Positions 24,101-48,778 of a DNA stretch of 64,000 nucleotides are shown here, one piece after another. The stretch's first letter is position 1, and each line of letters opens with the position of its first letter. Made by a program: the position numbers and the translations under genes. Under the pieces are notes generated by a model, which worked only from the letters and a program-made list of their open reading frames with translations, ran no database searches and had not been told where the DNA came from. The stretch spans positions 944,501 to 1,008,500 of the forward strand of contig JAKNDB010000068.1 in assembly GCA_024305405.1 (NCBI GenBank). Direction: 5' to 3'. Source of the DNA: Dirofilaria immitis (lineage: Eukaryota; Nematoda; Chromadorea; Rhabditida; Onchocercidae).

Positions 24101-27100
24101 GCTTCAAAATTATCACCGATATATTTAAATATGCTACAAGCTACAAGAATTATTATTTTTTTTTGATTCCAATTTCATGATTAATTAATTCCAAATTACT
24201 GTAATTATTTTTGATTGATTTTAATTAGAATTTATAATATCAGATATCACTTCCTGGTTGTGGATCAATCATTTTGGATACTCTAATATGGTTTTGGACA
24301 TTTTTATCACTTATTGAATCAATTTGGGTATTTTCCATGCGTATTCAACGAGCACCCTTCGTCAAGTATAATTTAATTAATTTAAATTGAAATTCAAATA
24401 AGCATATTAAACTTTTAAAATTTGTAAGATAACTGAGCAACAAAATTATCATATAAAATGAATAATGGTGTTAAAAACTTCAAATAATTTTGCAAATCTT
24501 AATCAATTTGAATAATTCAATTATCATTGCAAAAACGAATAAAAAATTTCAAAAATTTTCAGCTTCGTTGGCGTTTTTTGATATTATTGTGATAGCATTA
24601 CATCTCCTAATTATTCTTATTTTGAAAATACTTTCTTTTACAATTTCTATCAGTTCTGTGGTTTGTTTTTTCATCTTTTTTTTAAAAAAAAAAATTTATT
24701 ATGTCAAAAGGCAGTGAAGAGAGATTCAGGAAGGCTTTGAATGTATGATCAGATGTATTGATTCTGTGATATCAAATGAATGACAGTTAGAAATTTATCA
24801 ATACCATCGAGAATCAGATTTTCGTCATTTTATGAAATAACTCTTCTCCGAATCGCAGTTATTTTTCATTTATGATTCAGATACATTGATATAAAATCTT
24901 CTATTTAGATATAATTGAAACAGAATCTTCTATTCCACTACATTAAATTCCAATACATCTTCCTACTCAAATATATGAAAAACAATTATAATAGCTATAC
25001 TATATTTTACACCTAACAATTTTCAAATAATTGTGAGAAATGTATCGATGCATATGTGTTGTGTTCAGATATTCGATTTATAAATGTTGACGAAAATTTG
25101 AGAAGATTTTCTTTGAAGAAAGCTGATTTCAGGGGATATCAAACGTGAAAATCAAAGGACATGAAACCATGAAATCTTTGAGTATTATTAATCCTTGAAA
25201 TTTAATGATGATTTTGAAAATTTTTTGTTGAATTCTGCATTTTAGCCATTTCATATACCGTATGCAATACGTATTTCGTCAGCATTTCTATTACTTTATT
25301 TGTGCTATTCAACACTATTTCATTTTGTCCCATTATCGCAAACATTTGGCGCATTTGTCGTACGTGTTAAACTTATGATTATCCGAGATTTTTCAATTTT
25401 TTAATACTTATCGCTTTAGTGATCGGAAGGTTTGTGTATATTTTTTTTTATCATAGCAAATTTATTATTTATCACAAAATTTTCATTAAAATAGTGATAA
25501 TTTACAAAATAGAAAAATGATAAATAAATTATCTGTGAAGTACAAGTATAATAATTGTGCAATTGCAACGATTGTTTGAATAATTACTTGTAAAAAATTA
25601 TTTAGTAGCGAAAAAATGGGAAAATTCTTTTCTATTACTGTAAAAATTATTTAGGAAAATTCTTTTCTATTACTGTAAAAAATTATTTAGGAAAATTCTT
25701 TTCTATTACTGTAAAAAATTATTTAGGAAAATTCTTTTTCTATATTACTGTAAAAAATTATTTAGTAGTGAAAAAAAAGAAAAGAATTTTCCTATTTTTA
25801 AGAGTCATCGAAACTATGCACAGTATTCTTCCATCTTCTGTTTTATAGCAATTTCAAATTTTCAGTAGTGCGATAGCAGTTCGTTCATTATTATATCCGG
25901 ATCAAGCTTTAACTTGGCTATTAATTTCAAAAACATTTTCTTGGGCCTGGTTTTCATTATTTCAAATTCAGTACAATGGTATAATTTATAATGTACTTCT
26001 ATTCTGTATCCCTCTGAAAATGGATTATTTCTATTTTTATATTTTAATTCAAAATAAACATGATTATATGTTTACTGGTATTCAACTTATCTTACTAATT
26101 AATTAAATTATCTGTCAATTGTCAATTCGCTGTCAATCTAACAAACTTATCTATCAATTAATAATTATCAATTATTAAAATCTAAACTACAGAAGAAAAA
26201 TCCTACGCAGAAATAATTATCGAATTTAAAGGCAGTATTTAAATTAGGATATGAGAAATCTAGCCAATTATAATTTTAAAATAATATCATAATATTTTGG
26301 CAATTGAATTTTCTTGTAGAACTTCATGAAACAGAACACTGTAAAAAGACATATCTCGGTGATTATCATAATCGTGATCGTTGTGTAGCAATTGGTGGCT
26401 TTAGTGATTATAATTGTCCAAGTCAAAATTGGATTGGACATTTAGCAGTATTGGAATATTTCATCGTGTTAAAATTAATCTGTTGGCCAATTCTTTTTGC
26501 GCTTTTTTCCAAAACAGCCAAAGAAGTAGATAACAAAGCGGATCAAATTTGGAAATATCAACTTTATTCAATGGTTGAAGATTTAAGGTTAGTTAATGTT
26601 TTTATTTATTTTTAAATTTATTCAAATAATCCTTAATAAATCAATAATAATCAATTTTACCATCATGTCCATGCTGAACTATTCTTGAACCCTAAAATTT
26701 TTTTATGATTTCATCAACAGAAAAAAAAGCTATTAATTAATTTTAATTTTTCAATCAATGAATAAAATTGATATTTCTAAATTTGATCCATTTCATTGTT
26801 GCTACTTTTTCTCTGTTATGAAAAAAGAACGCGAAAAAAAATGGCCAATAGATGATAGCTTTGGTTAAACTATCCGTCAAATCTTACTATATCTCATTGT
26901 ATGATAACATTGGAAGATTCTGCGTCAAAAACATCATATCATATTATGTGACAAAAATTTTCGATTCTATGGAAAGTTAAAATAGCTTGAAATATATACG
27001 TCCAATTTTCTATCATTTTGATTTTGTTGAAATTGGTTGATAATATATTTTTTACGTATCAGATTCCGTCCTCCATTACCGCCACCATTTACACTATTCT

Positions 27101-30100
27101 TCTTCCTCGGTGCTTCTTGTTGTCGACAATGTTCTTGTTTCGTTAATTCGTGTCGCAATTTAAATATGATCAATTTGGATCATCCAGATGTTGTTCGCAA
27201 TCAACCGATTTCGAAATTATTCAGCGATGTAAATCAGTTTGTTAGTATAAACAAAAATATGCTCTCAAATGGATGTATATTTTTGGATTCACAATTTAGG
27301 GTAAATTATGACAATTACGATTGTATTTTTTATCACTCTATAATGCTCCAATAGTTACTTCAACATATTTAAATGGTTCTAAAGTTCAAAGTTTCGTTAT
27401 CTTTCTATCTGTATTTCCAATTTATCCACAAGTATTGATATTAAATTCTAAACATTGCTTTGTACCATATTGTTTCTTTACACAAACAGTTTTCTATTAA
27501 TTATGAAAAAATTAGAGAATAATTAAGCTCTCTGAATATTTAGACGAAATCTATAAATCTGTGGAATGAAGCTTCAGTCAAGATGACAAATTCAGATGTG
27601 AATTTTAAGAATAACAATGAGAATTATCAGTTACGGGAACAAATACGATTATTGACTGTATCACAATATTTTTCAACAGCTTCTAAAAGTATAAATATCA
27701 TCAAAAGTCTCTTCTTCTTCATAACAAGAATCTTATGACCAAATATCTCATATATTTAGATAACTCTTTAATTTAGCTTTTATAAGCATGAATTAATTGC
27801 TTTACAATATAACAAAAAAATTATGTATAAAAATTATCCCAATTACTATATTTTGTAGATTCAAATGATGATTGGAATAATTCATTCGTAAGCGTACCAT
27901 ATGATCAGTCAGCAAATATTTGGAAATTAGTTATTGCTGAAAAATATCAATCTTATCATGTATTAATATCTAATTATTGTCCATCATTTTACTGCAAACC
28001 TATTAATGATTTCCCAAGTAATCTACAGGAATATGTTGATAATTCAACATCAGAGGTAAGTGATAGTTGAAAAGGTTCAACTGAATTAAATCTGTAATTA
28101 AGTCGTTAATTAACGGAATAACTAGCAACTAATTCAGAAATAACTAACTAAATGGCAAATTAATATGATAATTGATTATAAGATTGATCATTAAAGTGAT
28201 CGATTGATAAAAATCGAGATATTTAGCGGCATGAATATCTTGATTATTTCTAATATATTTCTATGTTATAAAAAACATTTCGGTTATTCGAATAATACAT
28301 ATGAAATTAAGATAAGGCTATCCATCGAACATTTCTGTGGATGCGCTTTTTTTTTTTATAAGAAATAATTTCTAGAAGTTTGGAGAAATTATAATTTAAA
28401 TTTTAGAACTTAATTTTGCTACGAAAATACTGGAAACGATGGCAACAGAATAAAATGTTGGAATTATTTGCGCTTTCATTACCGTTCACAGTTAATGCAT
28501 ATGGTTTACCATTGAATCCGAACGGTCGACAAGGTATTGCCGGACGTGGAAATCATCTAAAATTTGGCGCTAATTTATTGAATGTCTACATTTTAATGCG
28601 TACAACTAGTACCAATCAATTAATGGTACTTAATTTCAACATTGAATTTGTATTTTGGCAATTCTATTTTTTTAAGTTATCTGATAAACGGAAAATGTCA
28701 ATAATTTTAGAATATAGTTAATTATTCCATGCATCTATGTAATTGTTCAATTTTAAATCATTTGAATTTTCATAACTTCAATAAACTTTAGATTATACTA
28801 GAAGGGAATACATTTCCAATTCGTTGGCGATTAAATAATGGATGTTGCGACAAAGAACTTCAATTAATCCTACAAAATTATCCATTTAGCAATCTGGATA
28901 TTCAAGTAAGCAAAAAAAAATATTATGCATGATTTCATGATTTCAAAGATTCATTTCCACGTAATTTCTTCATTATCGAATACTCTAAAAAAATTGTATT
29001 CAATGATGCAATGAGAATTTTCAAAAAAAAAAAAAATTAACTTTTCTGATTTATATTCTTGTAGTTTTACATCTAATAGCATATGTAAATTTATGGAATG
29101 CAATCAGAAACTTTTCTGATCCCACCCTATCTGTGAGAATTATTCCTCATTAAAAAAAAAAATGTATTACTACGAAACAATGGCTAGGCTTAATTTGGGA
29201 CCAGAAAAAATAGATTATTGGTTTGCTTACTAGATTTTAGCAAAAATTCAATTCTTCCAGTGAACGTTGCACAAATGTTTTTGCATAACATTACAAAAAT
29301 TGCTTGCAAATTTTATTTCTCATTAATTATCTTTTCCAGAATTTAAAATGATATTATGATAGGCTATGCGTAAATTCTTTCGTCTAAGATACGAATCTTA
29401 ATGAAATGTTAAAAATATGCACAATTTTATGATAATCAAAAGAGAATGTTTTTTCTTCATTCTGTTATTAGTTTTATCCGAAATGGAATGATTCCTAAAA
29501 ATTTTCGGAAAATTTTGCTAAAAGTTATGCTGTAGTAGATCAATATTATTGGCTAGAATTTACCTTTTCCACTTATCCAATTCTTTAATTTATTTTTGAA
29601 TAAATTAATGTAAGATTTAATGTGCAGGTAATAGAATATGATATAGATAATAGAATATAATAATAGAAAAAATATCTATTATTTATAAAACGATAATTAT
29701 AGACCTTTTGCAATCAGAAACTATTAAATGTTGGTGAAACAAACAATGGTGTAGCACACGTGAAACGTGTACCAGTAGCGGATATACGTGATACGGACAA
29801 TGCATGGATGGAACATGATGTCTGGGCAATTTTTCTTGGGTATATTTTTTTGTACACCTTTTTGTTAAAATTTCATTTTTTTTTGGATATGTAACACAGA
29901 AACGATCCTAGATAATTCAGGGTACTGTATGGAATCTTAGATACTGTAGAAGAGTTTATCAGTCTTACGAATTATTGCTGGTACTTCGTTAATCTATTTC
30001 AGAACAGATAATATAATTTGTCACTCTTTATCACTTATATACTATCCATTTTTAAAGAAAAATTGACAATAAATATCATTTTCTATCACATCTCTTTCTA

Positions 30101-30346
30101 AACAATAATTTTTAGTTCATTTCATTCAACCACTAATAAATTTTGAAAAAAATTTTCAGATCATATTGAGAATCTTGAATTGTATTGCGAATTTTCAGAT
30201 CACAAGTACCCGAAACGACATCAGCAATATCTGGAACAATGATTTGGCGTAATTGTGATGAGAATATTTTATCGATTCGTGATCGAGAATATCTTAATGC
30301 TGCCTTGGAATTCTTTACCGATCTTCAACAATATAAAACCATATGA
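18137..30346 (+). CDS. TRPM-family cation channel with degenerate NUDT9-H tail
   Basis: Exons in order: 18137-18418, 19024-19155, about 19321-19424, 19478-19525, 19612-19647, 19726-19916, 20071-20300, 20556-20705, 20992-21128, 21312-21410, 21514-21723, 22027-22203, 22312-22386, 22585-22790, 22890-22978, 23113-23306, 24244-24365, 24563-24660, 25246-25429, 25866-25978, 26320-26587, 27063-27300, 27544-27688, 27859-28055, 28407-28625, 28792-28905, 29718-29839, 30199-30346 (TGA); about 1,440 aa. TRPM homology region ([28 protein letters not shown]), then membrane spans, pore loop (FSLFQIQYN), TRP helix region ([20 protein letters not shown]), a short coiled coil, and NUDT9-H motifs [14 protein letters not shown] and IRDTDNAW. 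The Nudix box is absent. The closest C. elegans candidate is CED-11, not verified. The 5' end is not located. One-base breaks at 20230-20233, 21093-21097 and 25389-25393, and phase mismatches entering 19321 and 24563, suggest sequence errors or decay. Confidence 0.8.
25589..25800. repeat. Intronic tandem repeat, about 36 bp x 4, with inverted end
   Basis: The unit GTAAAAAATTATTTAGGAAA followed by ATTCTTTTCTATTACT repeats four times with small changes. It is followed at about 25771-25797 by AAAAGAATTTTCCTA, the reverse complement of part of the unit, so the transcript could fold back. It lies in the intron before the pore exon. Confidence 0.8.
29530..30340 (+). repeat. Source copy of a segmental duplication (TRPM 3' end)
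   Basis: This stretch, covering an intron part, the exon 29718-29839, the last intron and the last exon, is found again in direct orientation near 49449-50340 with high identity at the exon and larger gaps elsewhere. Because the version here is intact and in gene context, it is taken as the parent. Confidence 0.8.
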
Positions 30347-32849
30347 CATTTACTTTTATCTGCTCAATTTATTCATAAATTAGTCGAGAGTTGAGTATTA
30401 ATCAGCAAATGAAATTTTCATCTAAAATAGATGTCATTAAGCCGTATAGAAAGACAATTCACTGAAATTTGAAGTTACGACCTGATATCTCAAATCACAT
30501 CGATTTCTTTCTTTTTTCTTTAATAGTAATCGATATTTGATATTGCATTTGATAATTATGGTTTCTCGTTTTTAAGAGAATATCTTTCATACATAGCAAT
30601 GATATTCAACGATTATTTAAAATATTTTCTCAATTTCACTAAAATATCATTTTCTCTTTTATTATTTATTTTTATCACAACGAATTTAATGCTCCTAAAT
30701 TAACATTTAGAATTTTCAAACTTGAAAATTGTTTGATCTGTTTTTGCAAATGTTATAATAAACTATGCATATTATAGCAATTGATTAAATTATCAGAATT
30801 TCGCTTTCGATATTATAAGAAGATTGAAATTTATTTCGAAAATTAATTTTAATCTTTATTTCCTTAAATTAGTTTCGCATTTTTTTTTTTTTTATTGTAA
30901 ATTAATATATTTGCAATGTTGCGACTCAGTTCAGCGCCATCTTTTTTTTTCCATCTTAATCAAACTTTTTCAACTCTGACTGATAAGCTTTTGCAACGAA
31001 TTTATACCATCAGTAAAGCGATCGAATTAATGCAAGACTGAAATCATTTTTTTTTATAAATACTTTCAAAAAATATTTCTCTTGCTTTGAATTTCTACGA
31101 AAACAATTTGATGCAAAGCAAGTAAATTAGTTTCGAAGAATTTTTTGAAAAATTCATAATTCTAATTTTATTGAAAAATGTTGCCATAACTAACTTTGAG
31201 CTGTAAATGCAAATTATAAAAAGTTTTTGATTTTAATTTTTAAATAAGACTTATTTTGCAAATGTATAAAATTGTAGTTTCCCATTTTTTAAAATTCTTC
31301 ATGAAGCATCTTTTAAAAATTAAAAGATCAGAAAGCGATTGCAATCAATTTTTTTTTTCATCCACTAATTTTAATAATTTTTCGTAAATATATACAGAAT
31401 GGAAATAATGACGCGCATAGGAAGAGAGGGAAATTTTGATCTATGACTATAAAATAATCAATTTATTTCAGCATTCAATAAATGATATGCTTAATTTTTT
31501 TCTCTCATCATGATATGATCTTAAATTCTGGAAAGATAATCAATGAGAAGTGAATTAATTTGGACAATGGTTTATTATTTATAGCAACTTTTTTACGGTA
31601 ATAAATTTATGATCAAGATTTAAAGACTTAATCTCATATTATAAATCGTTGAAGCTATTGATCAACTATATGATATTGTTTAATTATAAGTTTACTACTG
31701 TTTCTAAAATAATCATAAAGGATTGTATTTTATCAATTGTTGAAATTTTTCTTGTAAAAAAAATGCCATCTTTTATCGTATGATTCATATCAATTGAAAA
31801 TATCATGCTGGTCGAGGGTTTTTTTGATTATAAGAAAGTAATTCAATTTCATTTATGATTCGTAAAATCTGTTTTTTAAATATTTTTTTCAATTATCAGT
31901 TATGAGAAGTTAGATATGCAGTAAGCTTTAAATTATCTGCAAAACTAATAATGCTGATAATAATTTGTTCAAAATATTTATTGATAAAATTTTATGCATG
32001 AAATCGTAAACATACAATTTATCATTCAAAAAAGATTCAAGATGACTTAGATATGTTATTTAATGTGAATATCTGCCAATGATTTGCTCATGACGGAGTT
32101 ATTTTTTTCCTGAAAAATTATATTTAAAGCAAAAAACATTTATCAATATTTTATCAATATATATTAAAATTTATAATGTGACTAAATAAATTATCGCTTA
32201 AAAATATTTTACAGATTGCTAAGAATCAATTTAGATTATTCAACTTTTTATTATACATTCGATTCTTTTCATTCATTTATTACATTAAATTGTAAAATGG
32301 TTTACTTATCGATTACAAACAATTTTTAACAAAAAAAAAAAAAATTCGATATTTTTCTCATTTTGTTTCGTTTGTTTACTAATTTTCATCCATTTGATTT
32401 AATTATTGTCAATAGAAGAATATATAATGTCTACCTTTTTTTTTTTTGAAACTTATAGGATATTTTGATATTTGTCGACAAATGAAATTTTATGCAGTCC
32501 TTAAAGATAATAACTTTAACAATGTTAAAAATATGGAAATTTTTAGGCTTAATTCCATAAATGAGCTAGCAATGATTGTATTCATTCATTTTTACAATGT
32601 TGTTGAATTTTTCATTTTTCATACATATGGTAAAATTTTATTAAATAAAATAATTTTTCCCATGCGATAATATTGTATTGAATACAGTGATCTCTTTATA
32701 AAGTAATACGGTATTTGATACAGTGATTTCTCTTGCAGTGTTGTACAACAATTATTATTGGATATGGTAATGCAAAATAAGAATGTAAAAAAAAATTTGA
32801 TGGATAATTGTTGTCAATTTATTTTCTTTCCAACATTACATGGTCTATC
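30347..32849. other. Intergenic DNA downstream of the TRPM gene
   Basis: This contains the presumed 3' UTR of the channel, with a putative AATAAA at 30757-30762. Otherwise it is A+T-rich sequence with T and A runs. No gene, RNA or long repeat is visible. Confidence 0.55.
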
Positions 32850-33414
32850 AGAGCTATCACGCATTTTTGCATCTTATTTTACCAATGCCTTGGTCACCTA
32901 TTATTATATATAATTTTGTTATTATTTGTCTGTCGGGTGTTAGATATTATTTAAGTTGTTGTATACGGTTTCATTACAAAAATTTTATTATCCTGGTCAA
33001 TCATTTCTTTTAAGTTAATTTTATTTGAACAATACCTTTTAGAAGTGTTGATTGTTCTTCTGAGCGTTTTCTTTTCCTGTTTGAAGCTTCTGGTCGTGTG
33101 CCTATTTCTTGCAATATTTCTTCTTTGCTGCAATACTGATAGTTTTGATAGGGATTTCCTTTTGCTTTTTCAATATGTGTTCCTTGCGGTAATTTTGCTG
33201 CTAGTGTTGTGAATCGTACTGGCGAGTTGAATTTAAAATAACATTGATAGTGAAGCGTTGAAGTTGTTGGGCATGTTTCTTTTCCAATAATTCCATATTG
33301 TAATCCGTTTCCTATTGAATTAATCAGTTCGAAGGTGAAATTTTCGCAGTCGAATACTGTTGCGGTCCAGCACTTCGCGCGTGATGTCATCATGTATGAT
33401 AAAATGGTTATCAA
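32850..33414 (-). pseudogene. rep: Endogenous CRESS-DNA virus Rep relic
   Basis: On the minus strand a frame of 134 codons (33414-33010; likely start ATG at 33390) encodes most of a rolling-circle HUH endonuclease domain. Motif I corresponds to WTATVF (residues 16-21), motif II to HYQ (55-57) within HYQCYFKF, and motif III to YCSK (94-97) with the candidate nicking tyrosine 94. It ends in an EIGTRPE stretch and a basic patch, as circular Rep-encoding ssDNA virus proteins do before their helicase. A stop at 33012-33010 closes the frame, and further stops follow. A P-loop-like GDQGIGK remains near 32880-32900 with isoleucine where serine or threonine is expected. No Walker B, motif C or capsid gene was found. 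This is an inherited, non-functional viral copy in nematode DNA. The exact virus family is undetermined. It is intronless, unlike its neighbours. Confidence 0.85.
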
Positions 33415-33750
33415 TGTGCGTTCTATGTTTCTTTTTCATAGTTTTTTTTTTTTTTTTTTTTATTTTTTGCTCTACATTGATGCTGGTTGGCATTGATTGT
33501 TTGCTTGTAACTATTATCTTACCTTAAGCAATTTCTTCGATTATTTTTCAAAATTGTAAAATGTAAATTTTATTTTGTTTTTGTTTTTGTTTTTTTTTAT
33601 TGTGATATTATTTCGAAGCGAAGAAAAGTATAAAATTTCTTCGAATAAATAGGATGGAAATTTTTGATTGCTTCTTCTATAATATATGCATTTCTAAAAT
33701 TTCTTAACTTTATATAATTTCTAAAAATTCATTAATAGAATGATTTTAAT

Positions 33751-33771
33751 TTTGGGGAAAAAACCCCCAAA
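33751..33771 (+). other. G/C-run hairpin
   Basis: TTTGGGG and CCCCAAA form a 7-bp perfect stem around a 7-nt, mostly A loop. Four G and five C residues in a row are exceptional in this A+T-rich window. It lies about 340 bp beyond the 5' end of the Rep relic. The loop does not contain the NANTATTAC nonamer of a CRESS origin. Confidence 0.6.
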
Positions 33772-35249
33772 CATACTTATAACGAAAATTTTGTTAATAT
33801 TTTTGTTACCATTCAGATGTTTTCATTCCATTACTTGTTTATCTGATTTTAAGATTCCTAAAATTACAAGAAGAAAAAGAAATAAAAATTTTCTTTTTTT
33901 TTTTTTTTATTGATATTCTTGAATTTTCTATATTGATCTTCTCATTCTCATAATAAGTCATTACGTTAGCAAACAGATAATCTCATTTTGTTCTAAAAAT
34001 CTCAAGATCAATCGCTTAAATTTGTAATTTTAAATACTTTTGTACTTTAACACTCCATAACACAATGTGAATATAAAAAAATTTTTTTAAATCTAAGTTA
34101 CATTATGCTTAATACTTTTATTACTTCTATATTTTCTCTTTGCTTAAAATTGAAGATGTAAAATTATTTTTTTTTATTATCAAAATTATCAATTAAGTTG
34201 ATAGAATTGCTATCATTCTTCTTTGGTAATCTAGGATTTCATTTTGTTTTTTTCAATGCTCAAATCTTATTTGTGATGAAAAAGAATAAGAATTTTTGAT
34301 AGTAAAAGAAAGTTTGTTATTTAACAGATTTCTACGATAAGATTAATCATATAAGAAGTTCAATGATTGGATTTCGTTTCGAAAATATTTGTATTTCAAC
34401 TAAATTAGAGTGAAATTTAAGTAAACGATAATCTTCAATATTTGATTAATTTCATTAATTACTTTAATAACATACACATTCACGGAAAATCATTTGAAAT
34501 GTTAATTGAAATGTTAATTCGATATGAAAATTTTGACTAAAATATTTTGATCGCATATTTTGATCGATTTAAAAATGTTTTTTTAAGTATTCGAGTAGAA
34601 AAGATTTGAGAAAGAGATAAAACTGGGATCTTTTAATTGTAAATCTATTTCCAATCATATATAGAAAAGTTGAAATTATGATTGATTTGATCGATTGATA
34701 AGAAAAAAGACTTCATGATCTTCTAAACTTCAACTTCACCTTCACTTCGTATCATTTCTATTCTTTCTATCTTTGTTGCAGTCCATAAAAAAAATTGTGA
34801 TGCTTGATAGATCTGAATTTCTATTCTAAAAAATAATCTCAACTTTGGGAAGAATAAAAAATTGTCAGATTATCAACTCTGATAAAAAATTGTTAAAACC
34901 GAAAGTTCAATTTAATAGCAATTTATTTCGTTTAGTTAAGAATTAACTAATGAAAAATGTGATTGGATAGATTTATAGTAGAGAAGTTAAATTTAATTCT
35001 ACGAGATTACTGTAAAGCTGAAATAAATATTTCTTATTAGTGCAATTTCGAAGAGAGGACAAAAATATATCTTTCATTGTATTTTGACAAGTTTTAAAAT
35101 GGCAAAACAAAAAAATTATGATTGATAATTTGTTAGTGTTAATGAATGCTTCTATTATTATAGGATTTAGAAATGATTAACGATGTCTCGTTAATCATTA
35201 TTTACTTAGATTACAATTTTTTTTTTGTTTGTTTTTCAAGAAAACAATG

Positions 35250-35447
35250 AACATAATTCTGTTTCATAGCCAATAATTGAACTCTTTGATTATCATTATC
35301 GGTTATCATTATCGCAAATCTTCCTCCTTCTTAAAATCCTTAATATATATATATATATATATACATGCACATACAAAACATAATTCTGTTTCATAGCCAA
35401 TAATTGAACTCTTTGCTCATCATTATCGGTTATCATTATCGCAATAA
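35250..35447. repeat. Duplicated segment of about 68 bp
   Basis: A segment starting CATAATTCTGTTTCATAGCC and ending in two TATCATTATCG phrases occurs at about 35252-35318 and again at about 35380-35445. The copies are separated by a TA run. Confidence 0.75.
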
Positions 35448-35591
35448 TTATAGTTAAATAAATCTTTAGTAATAATATCAAACATAATTAATATATTTAA
35501 TTGAACTTTTACATATAGTTTAGTTGCTATAAACTTTGAATTTTATCACTATGATTCATTCAGTTTACATTAATAAAAACTCAGATTGAAT

Positions 35592-35837
35592 ACAATTCGA
35601 TGTTGAGAATTGATTGAAAATATTAGTTAAATCATAGCACAGAATATGACTTACAATTCGATGTCGAGAATTGATTGAAAATATTAGTTAAATCATAGCA
35701 CAAAATATGACTTACAATTCGATGTCGAGAATTGATTGAAAATATTAGTTAAATCATAGCACAGAATATGACTTACAATTCGATGTCGAGAATTGATTGA
35801 AAATATTAGTTAAATCATAGCACAAAATATGACTTAC
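35592..35837. repeat. Tandem repeat, 61 bp x 4
   Basis: Units begin ACAATTCGATGT(T/C)GAGAAT at 35592, 35653, 35714 and 35775, an exact 61-bp period with two or three substitutions between copies. Alternate copies share CACAGAA or CACAAAA, suggesting growth as a two-unit block. Confidence 0.9.
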
Positions 35838-35975
35838 TAATGTACAACAATATCAATTATGGAATTATTTTTCGCATTTGAAAAATAGGTGAGAACAAAA
35901 TAGGTAAAACGAAATAAAATGAAAGTATAAAAGAATGAGATAAGATGAAAGAAGTTGAAAAAAAAAAGAAAAGAA

Positions 35976-36527
35976 TTTCTACCGGTGGTACTTCATGCTA
36001 TCTTCTAAATTTCTACCGGTACTTCATGCTATCTTCTAAATTTCTACCGGTACTTCATGCTATCTTCTAAATTTCTACCGGTACTTCATGCTATTTTCTA
36101 AATTTCTACTGTACTTCATGCTATCTTCTAAATTTCTACCGGTACTTCATGCTATTTTCTAAATTTCTACCGGTACTTCATGCTATCTTCTAAATTTCTA
36201 CCGGTACTTCATGCTATCTTCCAAATTTCTACCGGTACTTCATGCTATCTTCTAAATTTCTACCGTACTTCATGCTATCTTCTAAATTTCTACCGGTACT
36301 TCATGCTATCTTCTAAATTTCTACCGTACTTCATGCTATCTTCTAAATTTCTACCGGTACTTCATGCTATCTTCTAAATTTCTACCGGTACTTCATGCTA
36401 TTTTCTAAATTTCTACCGTACTTCATGCTATCTTCTAAATTTCTACCGTACTTCATGTTCTAAATTTCTACCGGTACTTCATGCTATCTTCTAAATTTCT
36501 ACCGGTACTTCATGCTATCTTCTAAAT
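35976..36527. repeat. Minisatellite, 29-31 bp, about 18 copies
   Basis: The unit contains CTACCGGTACTTCATGCTAT followed by CTTCTAAATTT. Variants lose one G of CCGGT or change CTTCTAAA to TTTCTAAA, and one unit is internally shortened. It is nearly homogeneous, implying recent amplification. A 65-codon open frame across part of it is a by-product of the repeat. Confidence 0.92.
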
Positions 36528-38904
36528 GTTTAGGATATTTTTGTAAGCAGTCATCATGATATATATATATATTGAACTTTGATCTCGGAATTTGTAAGAT
36601 TATTTAAGCAAAATGACAAAAATTTCCGTTCATATTCCCTTAGCATATTTCTAGTGATTAAATGAATTTATTTTTTTTTATCAAATTATCTCAAATATCT
36701 TTAAAATTTAAAATTAATTATTGTTAATGCGATATTTTCTACGGTTCTTTCATTTATATCGATCAGCGGCGGCATTAAATGTATATTTTTAGCAATGATC
36801 ATTTTTTTCCATTGATAATTTGATAATAATTCGGCTTATCATAATACTTTATTCTTCCGCTAGAAGGGAAAAATTTTTTCGATAGGTCTTCAGCACAAAT
36901 TCTGCTTTCTATAGCAGATTCAGTAAGTTTAATATCATCTTGATTTTCAGCAATGATCTTCTTTTTTCCATTCATAATTTGATAATAACAAAAATTCGAT
37001 ATATACTTTTCAATCCATTGAACTAATCCACATAATCATTCCTCAATCAATTTTTCATCGATGTAAATATTTTTTTATAATACATCGTCTACCAGTTTTT
37101 CAATTAGAATCATAGTCCGATTTGTTCAGCTTTTGTTTGATTAATCCATCGATGAATTTATATCGATTTATTTCTATTATTCATATGATTGATTATTTAT
37201 TGTATGATAATTATTATTTAACATTAAATTTCACATCTGTTAGATTCGCTTTTTCATCGCTTTTATACTATAAGATTGCAATTATCATTTATATATTAGT
37301 TTGAAAATTCATTCTACAATTCGTCCGACCGTGTAATTATAATTATATAGTCGCTTTTTTTTTTTTGGATATTTCAATTAGCATCGTTTGAGTAGAAATT
37401 TAATTTCTGCCTAATATTTGTTGAAAAAATTAATTTGCGAAATTTTTAATTATATCATTTATCATTTATCATTTATTATGAGAAAGGATAAAAAAATTGA
37501 TGCTTCGTCTTCCACACATTATATTTTATGAATTAATTTGATTGATAATAAAATCTACAAAAATCTTTCTCTAATAGTAAACTTGTAATCATTCAATTTA
37601 AGTAAGTATTATTCATTTAAATTCAATCTTTTTCTCGTATTCCATTTTTTTTTTTTTTTTTTTATAACTCACTTGGCGATTTTAAAATAGATTATTCGAA
37701 CAATCCCCGATGATCAATGCTACCTATTTATAATATTTGTTTATTTTGTAATAATGCGTTAAAAAAAAAAAGGATAATTACGTTAGTTATATTTTATTAC
37801 TATGTTATCATTTGCAGGATTCATTATATAATTTCGGAACGCATATTTGATGAGCTTCGATTGAGAATCTGTAAATTATGATGAAATTATAATTCAAACA
37901 AAAGAACTAGAAAAGAAACGTTGAAGTGTTAAGAAGGAAGAAAATTGGTGTAAAAAAAAAAAGATGACAACGAAAAAAATATAAATATATTATCAAGAAT
38001 TCATATCAATCATCTTCATCATCATTTACTACTTTTTCATCCAATATTTTGAGATTTTTTCATATTCATCATGAAATTCTAAAAGCCGCACAATTTAGAA
38101 ACGGATAAAAAGAGAAAAATAAACAAAAATTAAGGAAAGAAAATAAAAACTTAGAGCAAAAAAAAATCAGAATAAATCATGTCTTCATGTGTGTTGTCTC
38201 AATAATTTATAATTTATTCTTGATTCAAATTTCATCCTTCAAATATAAAAATTGAAAATTTAAAAATCGATGAATGTTTGTTTCTATTATCATTGCCCTA
38301 TATGATCATAAATTATTATCATTATAACATCGATATATCAGAGAAAGCCATTAATTTTCACTCATTATGGCCGATAATGATGGATAAAAGATTTCATTCA
38401 TTGTTTACTATCATTTATTAAATAGTTTGAATTTTTAAAGCATAAAATTAATTTAGTAATGGTAGAAAAGGAAATCAACATTAAATATATTTGGGTATCA
38501 ATTTGATAAGAACATATCTTTCATATTTTCTTACTTTAACAGCATAAATTGATAATAAATTAATTCGCCAATTTTTTTACATCTTTTATTGCTTTTTCGG
38601 CATCCAATATTTTTAATTGTTTACATTTGTTTGAAAAAAAAACAAACAATCATTTTATCAGTCTATTAATTTGTATAATAAATCATTTAAATTTGCTATC
38701 TTCAACTAAGCGAAAATTTTACTTTCAAAATTCTTAGATTTATTTATTTATCAATTATCTTTTATTATCATTTTGTTAAACAAATATTACCATTATTTTT
38801 GATAATTCTTATTAAACTAATATAATCAAATAATATCTATCATAATTACCTGTATACCAAATAAGACGTATTAGATTTAAATTATAAAAAAAAAAAAAAA
38901 CAAC

Positions 38905-39205: not shown

Positions 39206-40379
39206 AAAAAAAACAAACAAACGAACAACAACAAACAAACAAAAAAACAAAACAACAAACAAAAACAAAACGAAGTTATAATATTAAAAAGTTATAATAC
39301 CAAGCTTTAAAAAAATTTATTCTTCGCTTTCAATTCAGAAATAATTTATTTATTTTTTTAATTTACGATTATTTATTTCTCGTAAGAAAATCAACAAAAT
39401 CGATTATTTTCCTAAGAAAATTTAAATAAATCATATGATATAATAATGTTAAGTGATTATAGTTTTATTTTGTTTTTTTACATAAAATATTAATAAATGA
39501 AAATAATTATATAAGCGGAAAGAAGATCGCTTCTGCAAAATAGTATTTTTATTTTATTTCATTTCCAAAATTTTTACATAATTGAAAGATCGATGAATAA
39601 AAGTAAAAATTAATTGTACAAAATTTAATCATTGATAATTTCGAGAATCATGATAATTTTAAAAAATGGAAGCAAAAGCTATAAACTGATTAATAATGTT
39701 AAAAAAAAATACTTCTGATATAATAGATATGATTATAATAATCGCTGAAATAATCAAATCAAATAGTTCTAGATAAAAATTCTAATATAATATTATTATC
39801 ATTTGCAAAACTATGGAAATAATTTTTAAATGTGATATTTTGTTGGATAAAATTTTTGTAAGAAAATTTTGGAAAAAAAAAAAATTAAAAGATTATATGT
39901 TACATCAATCAATTGTATTGTATGTGAAACTTTTAAAAATATCAATATTTATTTATTTATTTATCTTTTTTTTTTTTTTGTATTACTATGCATAATACTA
40001 ATACAAATAATAATAATTCAAGGAAAAAATTGCTGATCAAAAATCATTTATGATGATCAAAAACAACAGGAATTGTAATAGTATATAGTGTATTGATATG
40101 ATTTTAGTAGTTTGTATTTCAGTCTTATGAAAATAAAAATGAGAAAAAAAAGTACCTTTCGTTATTTTTATTCATTCAATAAGAATAATGATGAATTGAT
40201 AAGTTCGAAGCATAATTTACTTCTCTTATATCAAATGATAAAATTAACTATGTCTGATATTTTATTTCAAATTAAATAAAAGTTATCAGAAATGGATCAT
40301 TTGCATTTTTACTTTTTTTTCATTTTAAAATTTTCTTCATTTTCTTCTATCTATCATATTGAACTAATAAAATATAAAT

Positions 40380-41262
40380 ATTATCATTATAAAGATTATT
40401 TCAATAGCTATATGATTGCCACCATTATCAATCTTTTATCATTATCACTATCTCTTATAAAGATTATTTCAATAGCTATGTGATTGCTATCATTATCAAT
40501 TTTTATCATTATCATTATCATCATCCTTATAAAGATTATTTCAATAGCTATGTGATTGCTATCATTATCAATCTTTTATCATTATCATTATCCCTTACAA
40601 AGATTATTTCAATAGCTATGTGATTGCTATCATTATCAATCTTTTATCATTATCATTATCATTATCCATATAAAGATTATTTCAATATTTATACCATTGT
40701 TAGCAATACTAATTTTTTCATACCTCCACATCCTCGTCCTATCCTTTAGTTTTATCATTATCACTATCCATATAAAGATTATTTCAATATTTATACAATT
40801 GTTAGCAATATTAATTTTTTCCTACCTCCACATCCTCGTCCTATCCTTTAGTTTTATCATTATCACTATCCATATAAAGATTATTTCAATATTTATACAA
40901 TTGTTAGCAATATTAATTTTTTCCTACCTCCACATCCTCGTCCTATCCTTTAGTTTTATCATTATCACTATCCATATAAAGATTATTTCAATATTTATAC
41001 AATTGTTAGCAATATTAATTTTTTCCTACCTCCACATCCTCGTCCTATCCTTTAGTTTTATCATTATCACTATCCATATAAAGATTATTTCAATATTTAT
41101 ACAATTGTTAGCAATATTAATTTTTTCCTACCTCCACATCCTCGTCCTATCCTTTAGTTTTATCATTATCACTATCCATATAAAGATTATTTCAATATTT
41201 ATACAATTGTTAGCAATATTAATTTTTTCCTACCACCACATCCTCATCCTATCTTTTACTTT
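40380..41262. repeat. Compound minisatellite upstream of the peptide transporter
   Basis: All units share AAAGATTATTTCAATA. At 40380-40690 they are 63-79 bp long and rich in ATTATC. From about 40697 the unit becomes 102 bp and is repeated five to six times almost identically (for example unit starts at 40801 and 40903). Because 102 is a multiple of three, one frame stays open for 214 codons and reads as a hydrophobic 34-residue repeat. This frame has no family resemblance and I do not regard it as a gene. The array ends only about 110 bp before the transporter ATG. Confidence 0.9.
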
Positions 41263-41375
41263 TCATTCGTTTTTAAATTTTGAAAAAAATTTTAAAATCA
41301 AATTAATAATATTCTCTACTAGCGCAGATAATATCATTTAACAAATTATAGTATCATTACAAAAATTATTACAAT

Positions 41376-44300
41376 ATGAATACCGGCAAACGTAAAGGAT
41401 TATTGGCCAGTCTTCGTGCCTATCCGCCAAGTGTATTTTTCATGTTGGGCAATGAATTCTGTGAACGTTTTAGTTTTTATGGTATGCGAGCCATCCTAAT
41501 ATTATACCTGATTACCGAACATCATTTTAGTGAAAGGTAACAAGAGCATCTGATGATGCATTTATCATCATTTTCTTGTTTATGATGAATTTAATTTTTA
41601 TCCTTAAATCAAAATACATTATTATCAATTGAAGTATTAAAATATATATACTTATAGTGAGGCATCATTTTTCTATCATTCATTTATTGCTTTTGCTTAT
41701 CTTTCGCCTTTATTTGGTTCCATTGCTGCGGATAATTATTTCGGACGATTTCGAGTAATCCTTTGGATGTCTGCTGTTTATGTAATTGGTCATATATTGC
41801 TATCAGTTGGTGCTATGCCAGATTTGGATCAAACTTTTCGCTTGATATTTGATTTTACTGGATTAGCTGTTATTGCTTTTGCTACAGGCGGTATAAAACC
41901 TTGTGTTTCTGCATTTGCTGCTGATCAGGTTGAATTTTTTTTTTTTTTGCAATATTTTAATAAGCCATTTGAAAAAAATTGAAGAATTCAAAATAGTTAT
42001 AAATAAAAATAATTTCACTTTCGCAATTATTTCAAATCTAAACGAGCAAATAAATTTTTTCAATTATATATAATAAATTTTGAATTACTAAAATCAAATA
42101 TTTAAATAATTCAAAATTTTTGAAAAATATAAAAATTAGATTTTTTCCTTTTTCTTTATTTTTTTTTGTTTTAAATAAAAATAAAATTATTCATTTTCTT
42201 TAATTAAATTTTCAAATTTAGAATTTTTATAAATTCGAATTTGAATGTAATTTTAGTTTGACGAAAAGCAAATAAATGAAAGGAATCAATTTTTTTCATT
42301 TTTCTATTTTTCTGTCAATGCTGGTTCATTGTTAGCAATTTTATTAACACCAATATTACGCGGTCGAGTGAAATGTTTTAATTCCGAATATTGTTTTCCA
42401 TTGGCATTTGGTAAGTAAATAAAACTTTGAAATGAGGTAAATATGACCTTATGGTCATAATATTTCTTTTTTTTTTTTTTCTCAGAAAGAATAGGATAAG
42501 TTTGTTATTTTAAAATTTTTCAAATGGCAATTTAACAAAATCGGAAAAAATTAAATTAACAAAATATTCTAATTTAGGTGTTCCTGGTGTGTTAATGTTA
42601 TTGGCTTTTATATTATTTCTTGCCGGTTGGCGATATTATCAAATTACACCACCTGCAAAAGGTAACATCGTTTTTAGCGTCTTCTGCTGTATTTGTTATG
42701 CAATGCGAGAAAAAATATGCAGCATTATAAGGTATTTACTTTTATTATCGTCAAAATAAATTTGGATTATTGGCTCTAAAATATACGTATATATATTTTA
42801 ATTTATAAGCGAATAAAAATGTCGAACAACTGCTAAAACTAAAGCTAATTTAAAAAAAAAAATGAAAAACTAAGATTAACATTCATAGTGAACAGCTAAT
42901 GGATTGTACCATTATCAATTGTATAATTTTGTTGATTAGACTATACCTGAAAAGTTCATCAGTTTATAAAAAAAAAAAAAAAAAAAGGTACGTTATCAGA
43001 AGATGAATTGATTGATATGATGATGATAAATACAGTTTTTCATATGTTGATTGAAAAGTTGAAATGAACGAAAATTTTTCATGACTAACTGATACTAATC
43101 GATGAATGATAAAATTAAATGCATTTTGCAGACGTCATGATAAAGCTGAACATTGGCTTGATTATGCTATACCCAAATATAGCAATAATTTTTGCGTAGC
43201 GTTAAAAGTTTAGTAGCTGTTTCAATTTTATTTACGCCAGTTGTACTATTTTGGGCATTATTCGATCAGCAAGTAAATAATTGCTAATTTTTTTTTTTTT
43301 TTTGACAAATATTACAGTGACTGAATAAATTGTTGCTCTGCTCTTAACAGCTTAATTATTAGTTCAAATTTCTGTCGAAATATTCGCTGAAATTCAATAG
43401 CTTAAAATAGCATTAGTTATAGGGAATAGATCTTTCCATAAATGTTTAGAAAATAGAAAGTACCACATTTCTGATATTCTTAGATCGTTTATATTTGTAG
43501 CATTGCAGGATTCTATGCATTTATCCTTCCTTAACTGTCGAAAAAAACAGATGCAATTTTTTATTCTAAAAATTTTTCAAACATCCAAATGAGTTGTATC
43601 ACAAAAATAGCAAAAATAAATCGAAAAGAGAAAGAGAGGCATTAATATAGCAAATAAATAAGATTCAAATTAAAGTTGGATTTTTTTGATTATTTGAAAT
43701 TCTCAATTATTTAAATATTTTTTTTTTTTGCAAGAACGAAGACATTTATGAAATTGTAATTTAGAAATAATTTCAAAATTTTTTTTCCATGGATTCTCAA
43801 CTCCTATATTTGTTTTTGACTACACAGAATTCTTCAATATTTATCCTTACTTACAAAATACAGAATCTAACTTTTGCAATAAATTTTTTAGGGTAGCACA
43901 TGGATATTGCAAGCTCGTCGTTTGGATGGTCGTGTTGGTCCATTTATGATACTACCAGATCAGATGAATGTTTTTAATCCACTCATTGTTCTTATCACTG
44001 TACCCATATTTGAAGCATGGATTTATCCATTAGTTGAGAGGATATTTAAAGTTACACCTCTTCGAAAAATGTCTCTCGGTGGTTGTCTTGCTGCTATAGC
44101 CTTTGTTATGGCAGGAATACTACAAGTAATACTTCTAACTTGATTTTTTAATTTCTTCGTAACAAATAGATTTCAAGAATTGAAAGTTTTTAGATGGTGT
44201 TTTCAACTACTGGAATATATATCACGGTGAAACTATGATTCAGTTCAATCTTTTTTTTTGATAGATTGAAGTGAATAAAACGATGGAAGCATGTCCGGAA

Positions 44301-46973: not shown

Positions 46974-47091
46974 GTCCACGACCATACCATGTTGAAAACA
47001 CGATATCTCGTCCGATCTGTCAAGTTAAGCAACTTTGGGCCTGGTTAGTACTTGGATCGGAGACGGCCTGGGAATCCCAGGTGTTGTAGAC
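46974..47091 (+). rRNA. 5S ribosomal RNA (variant copy)
   Basis: This 118-nt sequence follows the nematode 5S RNA from end to end: CACGACCATACCA near the 5' end, TCCGATCTGTCAAGTTAAGC, then TAGTACTTGGATCGGAGAC, GGCCTGGGAATCCCAGGTG, and GTTGTAGAC pairing back to the start. TTTTT just after the end suits RNA polymerase III termination. Compared with the truncated neighbour at 47386 and with the usual 5S, it has T for C in CCATGTTG, T in GATATC, and CAACTTTGG in place of CAACGTTGG. The last change falls in the internal promoter (box A region), and the closing stem has C opposite A. It may therefore be a little-used or decaying copy of a repeat family whose main array is elsewhere. Confidence 0.92.
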
Positions 47092-47183
47092 ATTTTTCGT
47101 TTTTGAAAACTTTTCATCATTATTAGTCAAGCTATTTTTCGATGCACTACAGTGATATATGAATGAAGGAATGAATATTTGAC

Positions 47184-47286
47184 GGTTTAATTACCCAAGT
47201 TTGAGGTAATTGAATGTTTCAGCCCAGAATTATATCTGCTGTGACTTGAAATGAAATTTTGGAAAGTCCTACATTTGTGGGACAAC
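47184..47286 (+). ncRNA. SL1: SL1 spliced-leader RNA
   Basis: Positions 47184-47205 match the 22-nt nematode spliced leader, beginning GGTTTAATTACCC and ending AAGTTTGAG, followed at once by the GT splice donor (47206). Downstream is an Sm-binding site AATTTTGG at 47255-47262. A 7-bp terminal stem, GTCCTAC with GTGGGAC (47266-47272 and 47277-47283), encloses the loop ATTT. The total of about 100 nt and the order leader-donor-Sm site-hairpin are those of SL RNAs. The RNA donates its leader to many nematode mRNAs by trans-splicing. It lies 92 bp after the 5S gene in the same direction, the linked arrangement known in filarial nematodes. The middle stem is less easy to fold by eye, so activity is likely but not proven. 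Confidence 0.92.
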
Positions 47287-47385
47287 AAACGATCCGATAT
47301 GAGTAGTAAGCGGTACAATGGTGAGAATTTTTAAAGCATTGATAGAAAATATGGGAATTTGATAGATATTTTTGTAATTGATTAT

Positions 47386-47448
47386 GTCTACGACCATACC
47401 ACGTTGAAAACACGACATCTCATCCGATCTGTCAAGTTAAGCAACGTT
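47386..47448 (+). pseudogene. Truncated 5S rRNA (first 63 nt)
   Basis: GTCTACGACCATACCACGTT and the following bases through GTTAAGCAACGTT match 5S RNA positions 1-63, after which the sequence departs into unrelated A+T-rich DNA. Its 5' flank (GAATTTGATA, GTAATTGATTAT) repeats that of the full 5S at 46950-46973. The two therefore mark one complete 5S-SL1 unit of about 412 bp and the broken start of the next. Confidence 0.9.
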
Positions 47449-48778
47449 AATAAATGCTTGTGTGCATTGTTTACACGATATTGAAATCTGTTGTGCTAAT
47501 TGTATGAAATTTTGTAAATATTATGTTGTAATGATCAAAAAGCTTTTTATGCATGTTTTGAAATATTATTGTCCATTTCTCATTTTTTTTTCTTTTGATA
47601 CCTATACCTAAACTCTTTGTTAAATCGAAAATCACGGGATATAACAAGAAATTTCTCGTAGTTAAGGAATAATAATCAGTTAATCATTATCAATGCAACC
47701 ATTGAACTTATCTGACAACCAATAATTTCAAATTCAATCGAATTATCAAATTTATCTCTAACAATAGAGTCCTTTTCATCAAGATTCTTTCACTTCATAA
47801 TAGTGAAATATTTCATAGAGGAAGATGAAGCGAAATAATCATAATTCTTGTATGATAGAGAAACCCTTTGTTAAATCGAAAATCACAGGATACAAGAAGA
47901 AATTTCTCGTAGTTAAGGAATAATAATCAGTTAATCATTATCAATGCAACCATTGAACTTATCTGACAACCAATAATTCTCAAATTCAATCTAATTATCA
48001 AATTTATCTCTAACAATAGAATCTTTTTCATCATGATTCTTTCATTTCATAATACTGAAATATTTTATAGAGTAAGATGAAATGAAACAATCATAATTCT
48101 TGTATGATAGAGAAATATGTCATATACAATTAAACTTTTCACCTTTATGCTATATTAATTAGCATATTATAAATTGTCTATGCTATGGTGAAATAAACTA
48201 AACAAACTTTCTTTGTGCTATATTAACATATTGTAAATTGTGCTATAATTGATAGGTAAAAAATAAAATCTCTTTTAAAACTGCGGGACTGTATATTTAC
48301 ATTCTTTATGCTATAAGTTATAATCTATAAAATTATGTTAAATTGTATGTAACATGTTGTGTTTAAACAAATTGCCACTATGTAAAATGTTAGAATTAAC
48401 TGGAATGATCAGTGTTAAAAAAAAATGATCGCAGCGATCAGTAGTAATTCATCGTTTAGAGAAAATTCTCAGAAAATATCTCAGGATCAATTTGTTAACT
48501 GAACAATGGACGAAAAAGAAACGAATGATGATCAATCTACAAATAATCGGATAATTGCCAATCCTACTTCGATATGTTTGAATAATTGTCTGCCATATAA
48601 CCATTATCCGATAAATAAAGTTCTTCCTTCAATCAATAAACCTTTATAAGCACTGAAAAATTTTCACGATATGATAGGAACGAAGTAGTTCTAATGAACT
48701 TTTCATGAAAAGTATCATATTGTAAGAAATTGTTTGCTGATTAGATATCGTTCAACTTTTTACTGCTATCATTTGTTA
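47449..48778. other. Spacer with a 250-bp tandem duplication
   Basis: No supported gene. A direct duplication lies at 47614-48115. A 47-codon ATG-to-TAA frame at 48506-48649, starting MDEKETNDDQS, has a plausible hydrophilic composition but no recognised domain and no splice context, so it is left as a possibility only. Confidence 0.5.
47614..48115. repeat. Tandem duplication, about 250 bp x 2
   Basis: Both copies begin CTTTGTTAAATCGAAAATCA, include TTTCTCGTAGTTAAGGAATA and CAACCATTGAACTTATCTGA, and end with CTTGTATGATAGAGAAA. They are separated by only a handful of substitutions. Confidence 0.9.

What the first reader, a model, noticed from the sequence alone, without database searches (positions are those of the whole stretch)
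32850..33414. Endogenous ssDNA-virus Rep in a nematode chromosome
A minus-strand frame holds the three rolling-circle motifs of CRESS-DNA virus replication proteins in correct order and spacing (motif I near residue 16, HxQ at 55-57, YCxK at 94-97). It sits between a TRPM channel gene and a peptide transporter gene, both clearly nematode, so it is integrated and not a contaminant contig. The frame has no introns, and stops follow the endonuclease part.
Basis: partly seen in the sequence, partly recalled or inferred. Interest (0 to 1): 0.9.

Follow-up and report, generated by a model that had tools for sequence, protein, structure and literature searches.

The report
Fossil ssDNA-virus gene in heartworm
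A piece of the replication gene of an ancient small circular DNA virus sits in a chromosome of the dog heartworm, one of several such viral relics in that genome; relics of this kind were already reported from related filarial worms in 2011.

The parts
33010..33393 (-). Open frame of the Rep HUH endonuclease domain (127 residues; ATG at 33393 or 33390)
33244..33252 (-). Motif II HxQ (HYQ)
   Evidence: H47 and Q49 invariant in 73 aligned Reps
33124..33135 (-). Motif III YCxK (YCSK) with the catalytic tyrosine position
   Evidence: Y86, C87, K89 invariant in 73 aligned Reps
32969..33022 (-). Rep linker, first piece, out of frame with the endonuclease
   Evidence: tblastn with the C61 helicase-side frame
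32878..32967 (-). Rep linker, second piece, another frame, with one stop, ending in the Walker A motif where viral homology stops
   Evidence: tblastn; blastn matches to L009 and L011 end at 32877-32878, one to L010 at 32871
26280..26612 (+). Flanking host gene: TRPM-like channel coding sequence
   Evidence: PDB TRPM5/TRPM2 matches, best E 1.4e-4; no Pfam family at 0.01
41641..41979 (+). Flanking host gene: POT/PTR2 peptide transporter exon
   Evidence: PF00854 E 2.7e-20

Best explanation
The segment is a truncated, non-retroviral endogenous viral element: about 515 bp of the Rep gene of a circular ssDNA (CRESS) virus that infected filarial nematodes, captured in the germ line of the Dirofilaria immitis lineage between TRPM-like and POT genes. 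In the virus the domain would nick the origin through Tyr86 with a metal held by the HUH site to start rolling-circle replication (inferred from family knowledge; motifs and fold shown, activity not). Viral homology starts at the ATG and stops inside the Walker A motif. I found no convincing target-site duplication and no 3' poly-A tail, so capture of a DNA fragment during host break repair is the likeliest route (inferred). Since insertion it has been a decaying fossil; its still-open endonuclease frame is best read as too little time to decay, not as a host gene.
For: PF02407, circovirus Rep by sequence and by fold. A 12-row cluster with all filarial-named endonuclease rows is starred in both trees. 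Paralogous Rep, helicase and probable capsid segments elsewhere in the genome. Linker with two frame breaks and one stop, helicase lost. Against C61, dN 0.17 and dS 1.11 in the endonuclease (118 codons), dN 0.14 and dS 1.45 in the broken linker (46 codons): similar constraint, so it predates insertion. GC 0.365 in the frame against about 0.22 in the 1-kb flanks.
Against: No reads across the junctions. No orthologous empty or filled site in another filarial genome could be examined, so the age is unknown. All three lesions fall outside the endonuclease frame, which has odds of about 0.02 by length if they fell at random (worked out by hand, post hoc). dS above 1 is near saturation and the linker sample is small.
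Confidence: 0.9

Rival explanations
1. Domesticated gene: the worm keeps the endonuclease domain as a functional protein (for example interference with related viruses), and the linker was free to decay.
For: Endonuclease frame open with the conserved residues present; it is annotated as gene DINM_001429; C61 also has an open endonuclease frame; an annotated endonuclease-only protein exists in O. volvulus (P0005, 118 aa); the three lesions lie outside the endonuclease.
Against: The broken linker looks as constrained as the endonuclease, so the constraint is inherited from the viral phase; the already broken C18a and C18d copies show the same low ratios. No expression data were available either way.
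Confidence: 0.06
2. A Rep-bearing mobile element that spreads by itself in filarial genomes.
For: Six loci in one genome, one of them (C26) of another lineage; linked Rep and capsid-like segments repeat at C18.
Against: Copies differ in extent; no flanking sequence matched between window 30000-37000 and the C18 or C61 stretches; the only flanking direct repeat of 7 bases or more is one T-rich 7-mer; divergence between copies has dS of 0.88 or more with low dN, as expected of separately captured viral lineages.
Confidence: 0.03
3. Assembly artefact or contaminating viral contig joined to host sequence.
For: Reads were not inspected.
Against: It lies inside a 12.5-Mb contig; the segment is already decayed; similar relics are published from four other filarial species.
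Confidence: 0.01

Closest known systems
Endogenous circovirus-like Rep sequences of filarial nematodes (Liu et al. 2011, PMC3198968, Table 1: B. malayi 1, L. loa 10, W. bancrofti 3, O. volvulus 5)
   Same: Same host group and same gene; over all hosts they call most such sequences truncated and degraded
   Different: D. immitis is not in that table, and no nematode capsid is listed (their three capsid sequences were from tobacco and sloth)
Nematode cluster of CRESS endogenous elements (Rosario et al. 2018, PMC6186406)
   Same: They report three of four elements from parasitic nematodes clustering and suggest a nematode-infecting lineage; the filarial cluster here agrees
   Different: Here more members, linked helicase and probable capsid in one genome, and an open full-length Rep on a contig of viral-genome size (P0008)
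Circovirus Rep endonuclease domain (PDB 5xor, 6wdz, 7kii, 8h56)
   Same: HUH motifs and fold; about 30% identity to PCV2 and 21% to duck circovirus over the aligned residues
   Different: Lies apart from the avian circovirus rows in the tree; helicase missing in the window copy

Membership tests
CRESS-DNA virus Rep (Cressdnaviricota), endonuclease domain | Motifs I, HUH-type HxQ and YxxK in order within PF02407 | tested here: met
CRESS-DNA virus Rep (Cressdnaviricota), endonuclease domain | Rep endonuclease fold | tested here: met
Full-length CRESS Rep | C-terminal superfamily 3 helicase domain | tested here: not met
   Window homology stops in Walker A; helicase segments are present at C61, C18 and C15
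Endogenous viral element | Viral sequence with host DNA on both sides | tested here: met
   In the assembly: 12.5-Mb contig with TRPM-like and POT coding sequence on either side
Endogenous viral element | Reads spanning both junctions | not testable with these tools
   No reads held
Circoviridae | Rep placed inside the circovirus group | tested here: inconclusive
   The filarial cluster lies apart from the avian circovirus rows, but the deep forks are open and few classified circovirids are in the set
Circoviridae | Capsid of the circovirus family | tested here: inconclusive
   No Pfam or PDB match supporting it for the capsid-like ORFs; model of P0093 too poor to use (pLDDT 37.8)
Circoviridae | Ambisense Rep and Cap with an origin stem-loop between them (definition recalled) | tested here: inconclusive
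   20 of 26 matched Rep and Cap pieces at C18 run in one sense, but the array is rearranged; one TAGTATTAC upstream of a C18 Rep copy has no convincing stem
Bacterial plasmid Rep (pMV158 RepB-like) | Best match among plasmid Reps | tested here: not met

The most novel reading that the evidence does not exclude
Filarial nematodes host a still circulating, undescribed family of circular ssDNA viruses with a Rep of about 300 aa and a small arginine-rich capsid on a genome of about 1.7-1.9 kb. These viruses have entered the heartworm germ line repeatedly and piled up at preferred sites such as C18. Hints are an open 311-aa Rep (P0008) on a 1,884-bp contig and a capsid homologue (P0098) on a 1,786-bp O. 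flexuosa contig, both near the 1.72-kb spacing of two Rep copies at C18. Neither contig could be inspected.
Probability: 0.4. Interest if true: 0.65.

Novelty: new member of a known kind. Interest (0 to 1): 0.33.

Why it matters
It adds the heartworm to the filarial species with CRESS-virus fossils and ties Rep, helicase and a probable capsid together in one nematode genome, which makes a nematode-infecting ssDNA virus lineage more concrete. If such viruses still circulate, they would be the first DNA viruses of filarial parasites that I am aware of (recalled, not searched exhaustively). On its own this locus is a routine fossil.

Tried and rejected
Exogenous relatives in IMG/VR: three scans (Rep alignment A1, a capsid piece, P0008) gave 186, 600 and 4 pattern matches, none confirmed by tblastn; a fourth request with capsid alignment A5 ended in an error. 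Capsid identity by Pfam, PDB sequence and structure prediction: nothing usable. Origin stem-loop: none convincing. Target-site duplication: only one T-rich 7-mer. Domestication: considered, not supported. One insertion followed by duplication for the D. immitis copies: not rejected on the protein tree (AU p 0.207), and window and C61 are weak sisters (71/83); the low dN/dS between copies argues that most divergence predates insertion. A programmed frameshift was considered because three of eight inspected copies (window, C61, one C18 copy) break in the same short adenine run, while four are continuous, two of these being near-identical, and one is unclear; slippage is simpler, and database Reps P0007 and P0008 each carry endonuclease and helicase motifs in one protein. 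Eight literature searches (open-licence PMC only) listed no report that I recognised as a nematode capsid of this kind.

Full report
Observation. The minus-strand frame at 33010-33435 is open for 141 codons. Pfam finds one family, Viral_Rep PF02407, at E 1.8e-9. By sequence the nearest solved structures are porcine circovirus 2 Rep endonuclease domains, best E 2.2e-7. A first-order Markov simulation of the 2.5-kb neighbourhood gave a frame this long in 6 of 1000 runs, so homology and not length carries the claim.

Host. The closest database protein, P0001 (DINM_001429, Dirofilaria immitis), is on a contig of 12,535,412 bases, the length of contig C10 that holds the window. P0002 and P0097 match C61 and C18 in the same way. 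P0001's last residues are encoded at the Walker A remnant, so the public gene model appears to splice over the broken linker (read by eye). The window also holds an SL1 RNA gene and two 5S rRNA matches.

Anatomy. Similarity to the other copies starts at 33391, at the ATG, and ends at 32877-32878 (32871 in one pair), inside the helicase Walker A motif. The endonuclease part is open. The linker lies in two pieces in two further frames and contains one stop. No capsid similarity and no further convincing helicase similarity was found in the window. GC is 0.365 in the frame, 0.259 in the linker and about 0.22 in the flanks; the C61 linker is also lower (0.300) than its endonuclease (0.394). A 20-base A run lies upstream of the start on the coding strand, the wrong side for a retrotransposed mRNA.

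Relatives. The first protein search gave six hits, five named as filarial and one unnamed. The profile search gave 90 hits: the best 11 are eight named filarial proteins and three unnamed (P0003, P0008, P0011); the next hit is at E 1.5e-19 and the rest are mostly unnamed CRESS-type Reps, with one more filarial protein, the helicase-side P0043 of B. malayi. In a quick tree of 90 rows the window, one C18 copy and P0002-P0011 form one 12-row group at SH-aLRT 99; the truncated C18d copy, P0001 (identical to the window over this domain) and P0043 were left out, and the tool warns of few columns. A careful tree of 21 rows supports the group at 98/96. Order inside the group is mostly unresolved.

Other copies in the genome. 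Rep endonuclease, helicase and capsid-like segments lie together at C18:243.5-253.9 kb and C61:1134.7-1136.7 kb. A helicase piece lies at C15:1257.7 kb, an open capsid-like frame at C10:5520456-5520833, and a broken PF02407 match that the tested Reps did not hit at C26:569.7 kb. Two Rep copies at C18 are spaced 1.72 kb apart. The capsid-like ORF has an arginine-rich start and 11 database hits, ten named filarial (one called capsid protein by UniRef) and one unnamed. Its identity as a capsid is probable, not shown: no supporting Pfam or PDB match and no usable model.

Selection. Between five endonuclease copies, ten pairs, dS is 0.88 or more and the seven finite dN/dS ratios are 0.10-0.20, including copies that are already broken; three pairs had saturated dS. 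Between the window and C61 the broken linker gives dN 0.14, dS 1.45 (46 codons) and the endonuclease dN 0.17, dS 1.11 (118 codons). Similar constraint on both sides of the break means that it dates mainly from the viral phase, so the open frame is no evidence of a host function. Against this, the three lesions lie in the shorter part, a weak hint of retention.

Prior work. Liu et al. 2011 (PMC3198968; sections 6 and 9 and passages read) list Rep-like sequences in B. malayi, L. loa, W. bancrofti and O. volvulus and no nematode capsid; they also mention related ESTs for two roundworm species. Rosario et al. 2018 (PMC6186406; passages read) report that three of four elements from parasitic nematodes cluster and suggest a nematode-infecting lineage. 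In Quek et al. 2024 (PMC11445058; passages read) the table row for D. immitis shows no RNA virus. The window finding is thus a new member of a known kind.

Noticed in passing
G000:C18:243519-253907 (L009, L010): Array of Rep endonuclease, helicase and capsid-like segments, 20 of 26 matched pieces in one sense, with an inverted pair (L010 204-878 and 1305-1980) 98.5% identical.
   Followed up: partly
L010 4923-6335: Two adjoining ORFs; the second matches DUF1759 (E 3.7e-6) with a weak CCHC knuckle. They interrupt a capsid-like copy, suggesting a Bel/Pao-type retroelement insertion (type recalled).
   Followed up: partly
G000:C10:5520456-5520833 (L023): Open capsid-like frame, 70% identical to P0093, with no Rep or helicase match in the 3.4 kb or so held around it.
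   Followed up: partly
G000:C26:569746-569973 (L015): Broken PF02407 match (26.5 bits) that none of the 14 tested proteins hit by tblastn; perhaps another viral lineage.
   Followed up: partly
window 33010-33080, L011 4860-4940, L010 6560-6650: Three of eight inspected Rep copies break in the same short adenine run between endonuclease and linker.
   Followed up: partly
window 46974-48115: SL1 RNA gene with two 5S rRNA matches and a 252-bp direct duplication beside them.
   Followed up: no
window 35591-36527 and 40379-41263: Minisatellite arrays (units of 31, 61, 68 and 102 bp among others) between the element and the POT exon.
   Followed up: no
P0091, P0092, P0094, P0095, P0096, P0099: Capsid-like D. 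immitis proteins carry unrelated names in a public annotation (potassium channel, usherin, uridylate kinase and others).
   Followed up: no
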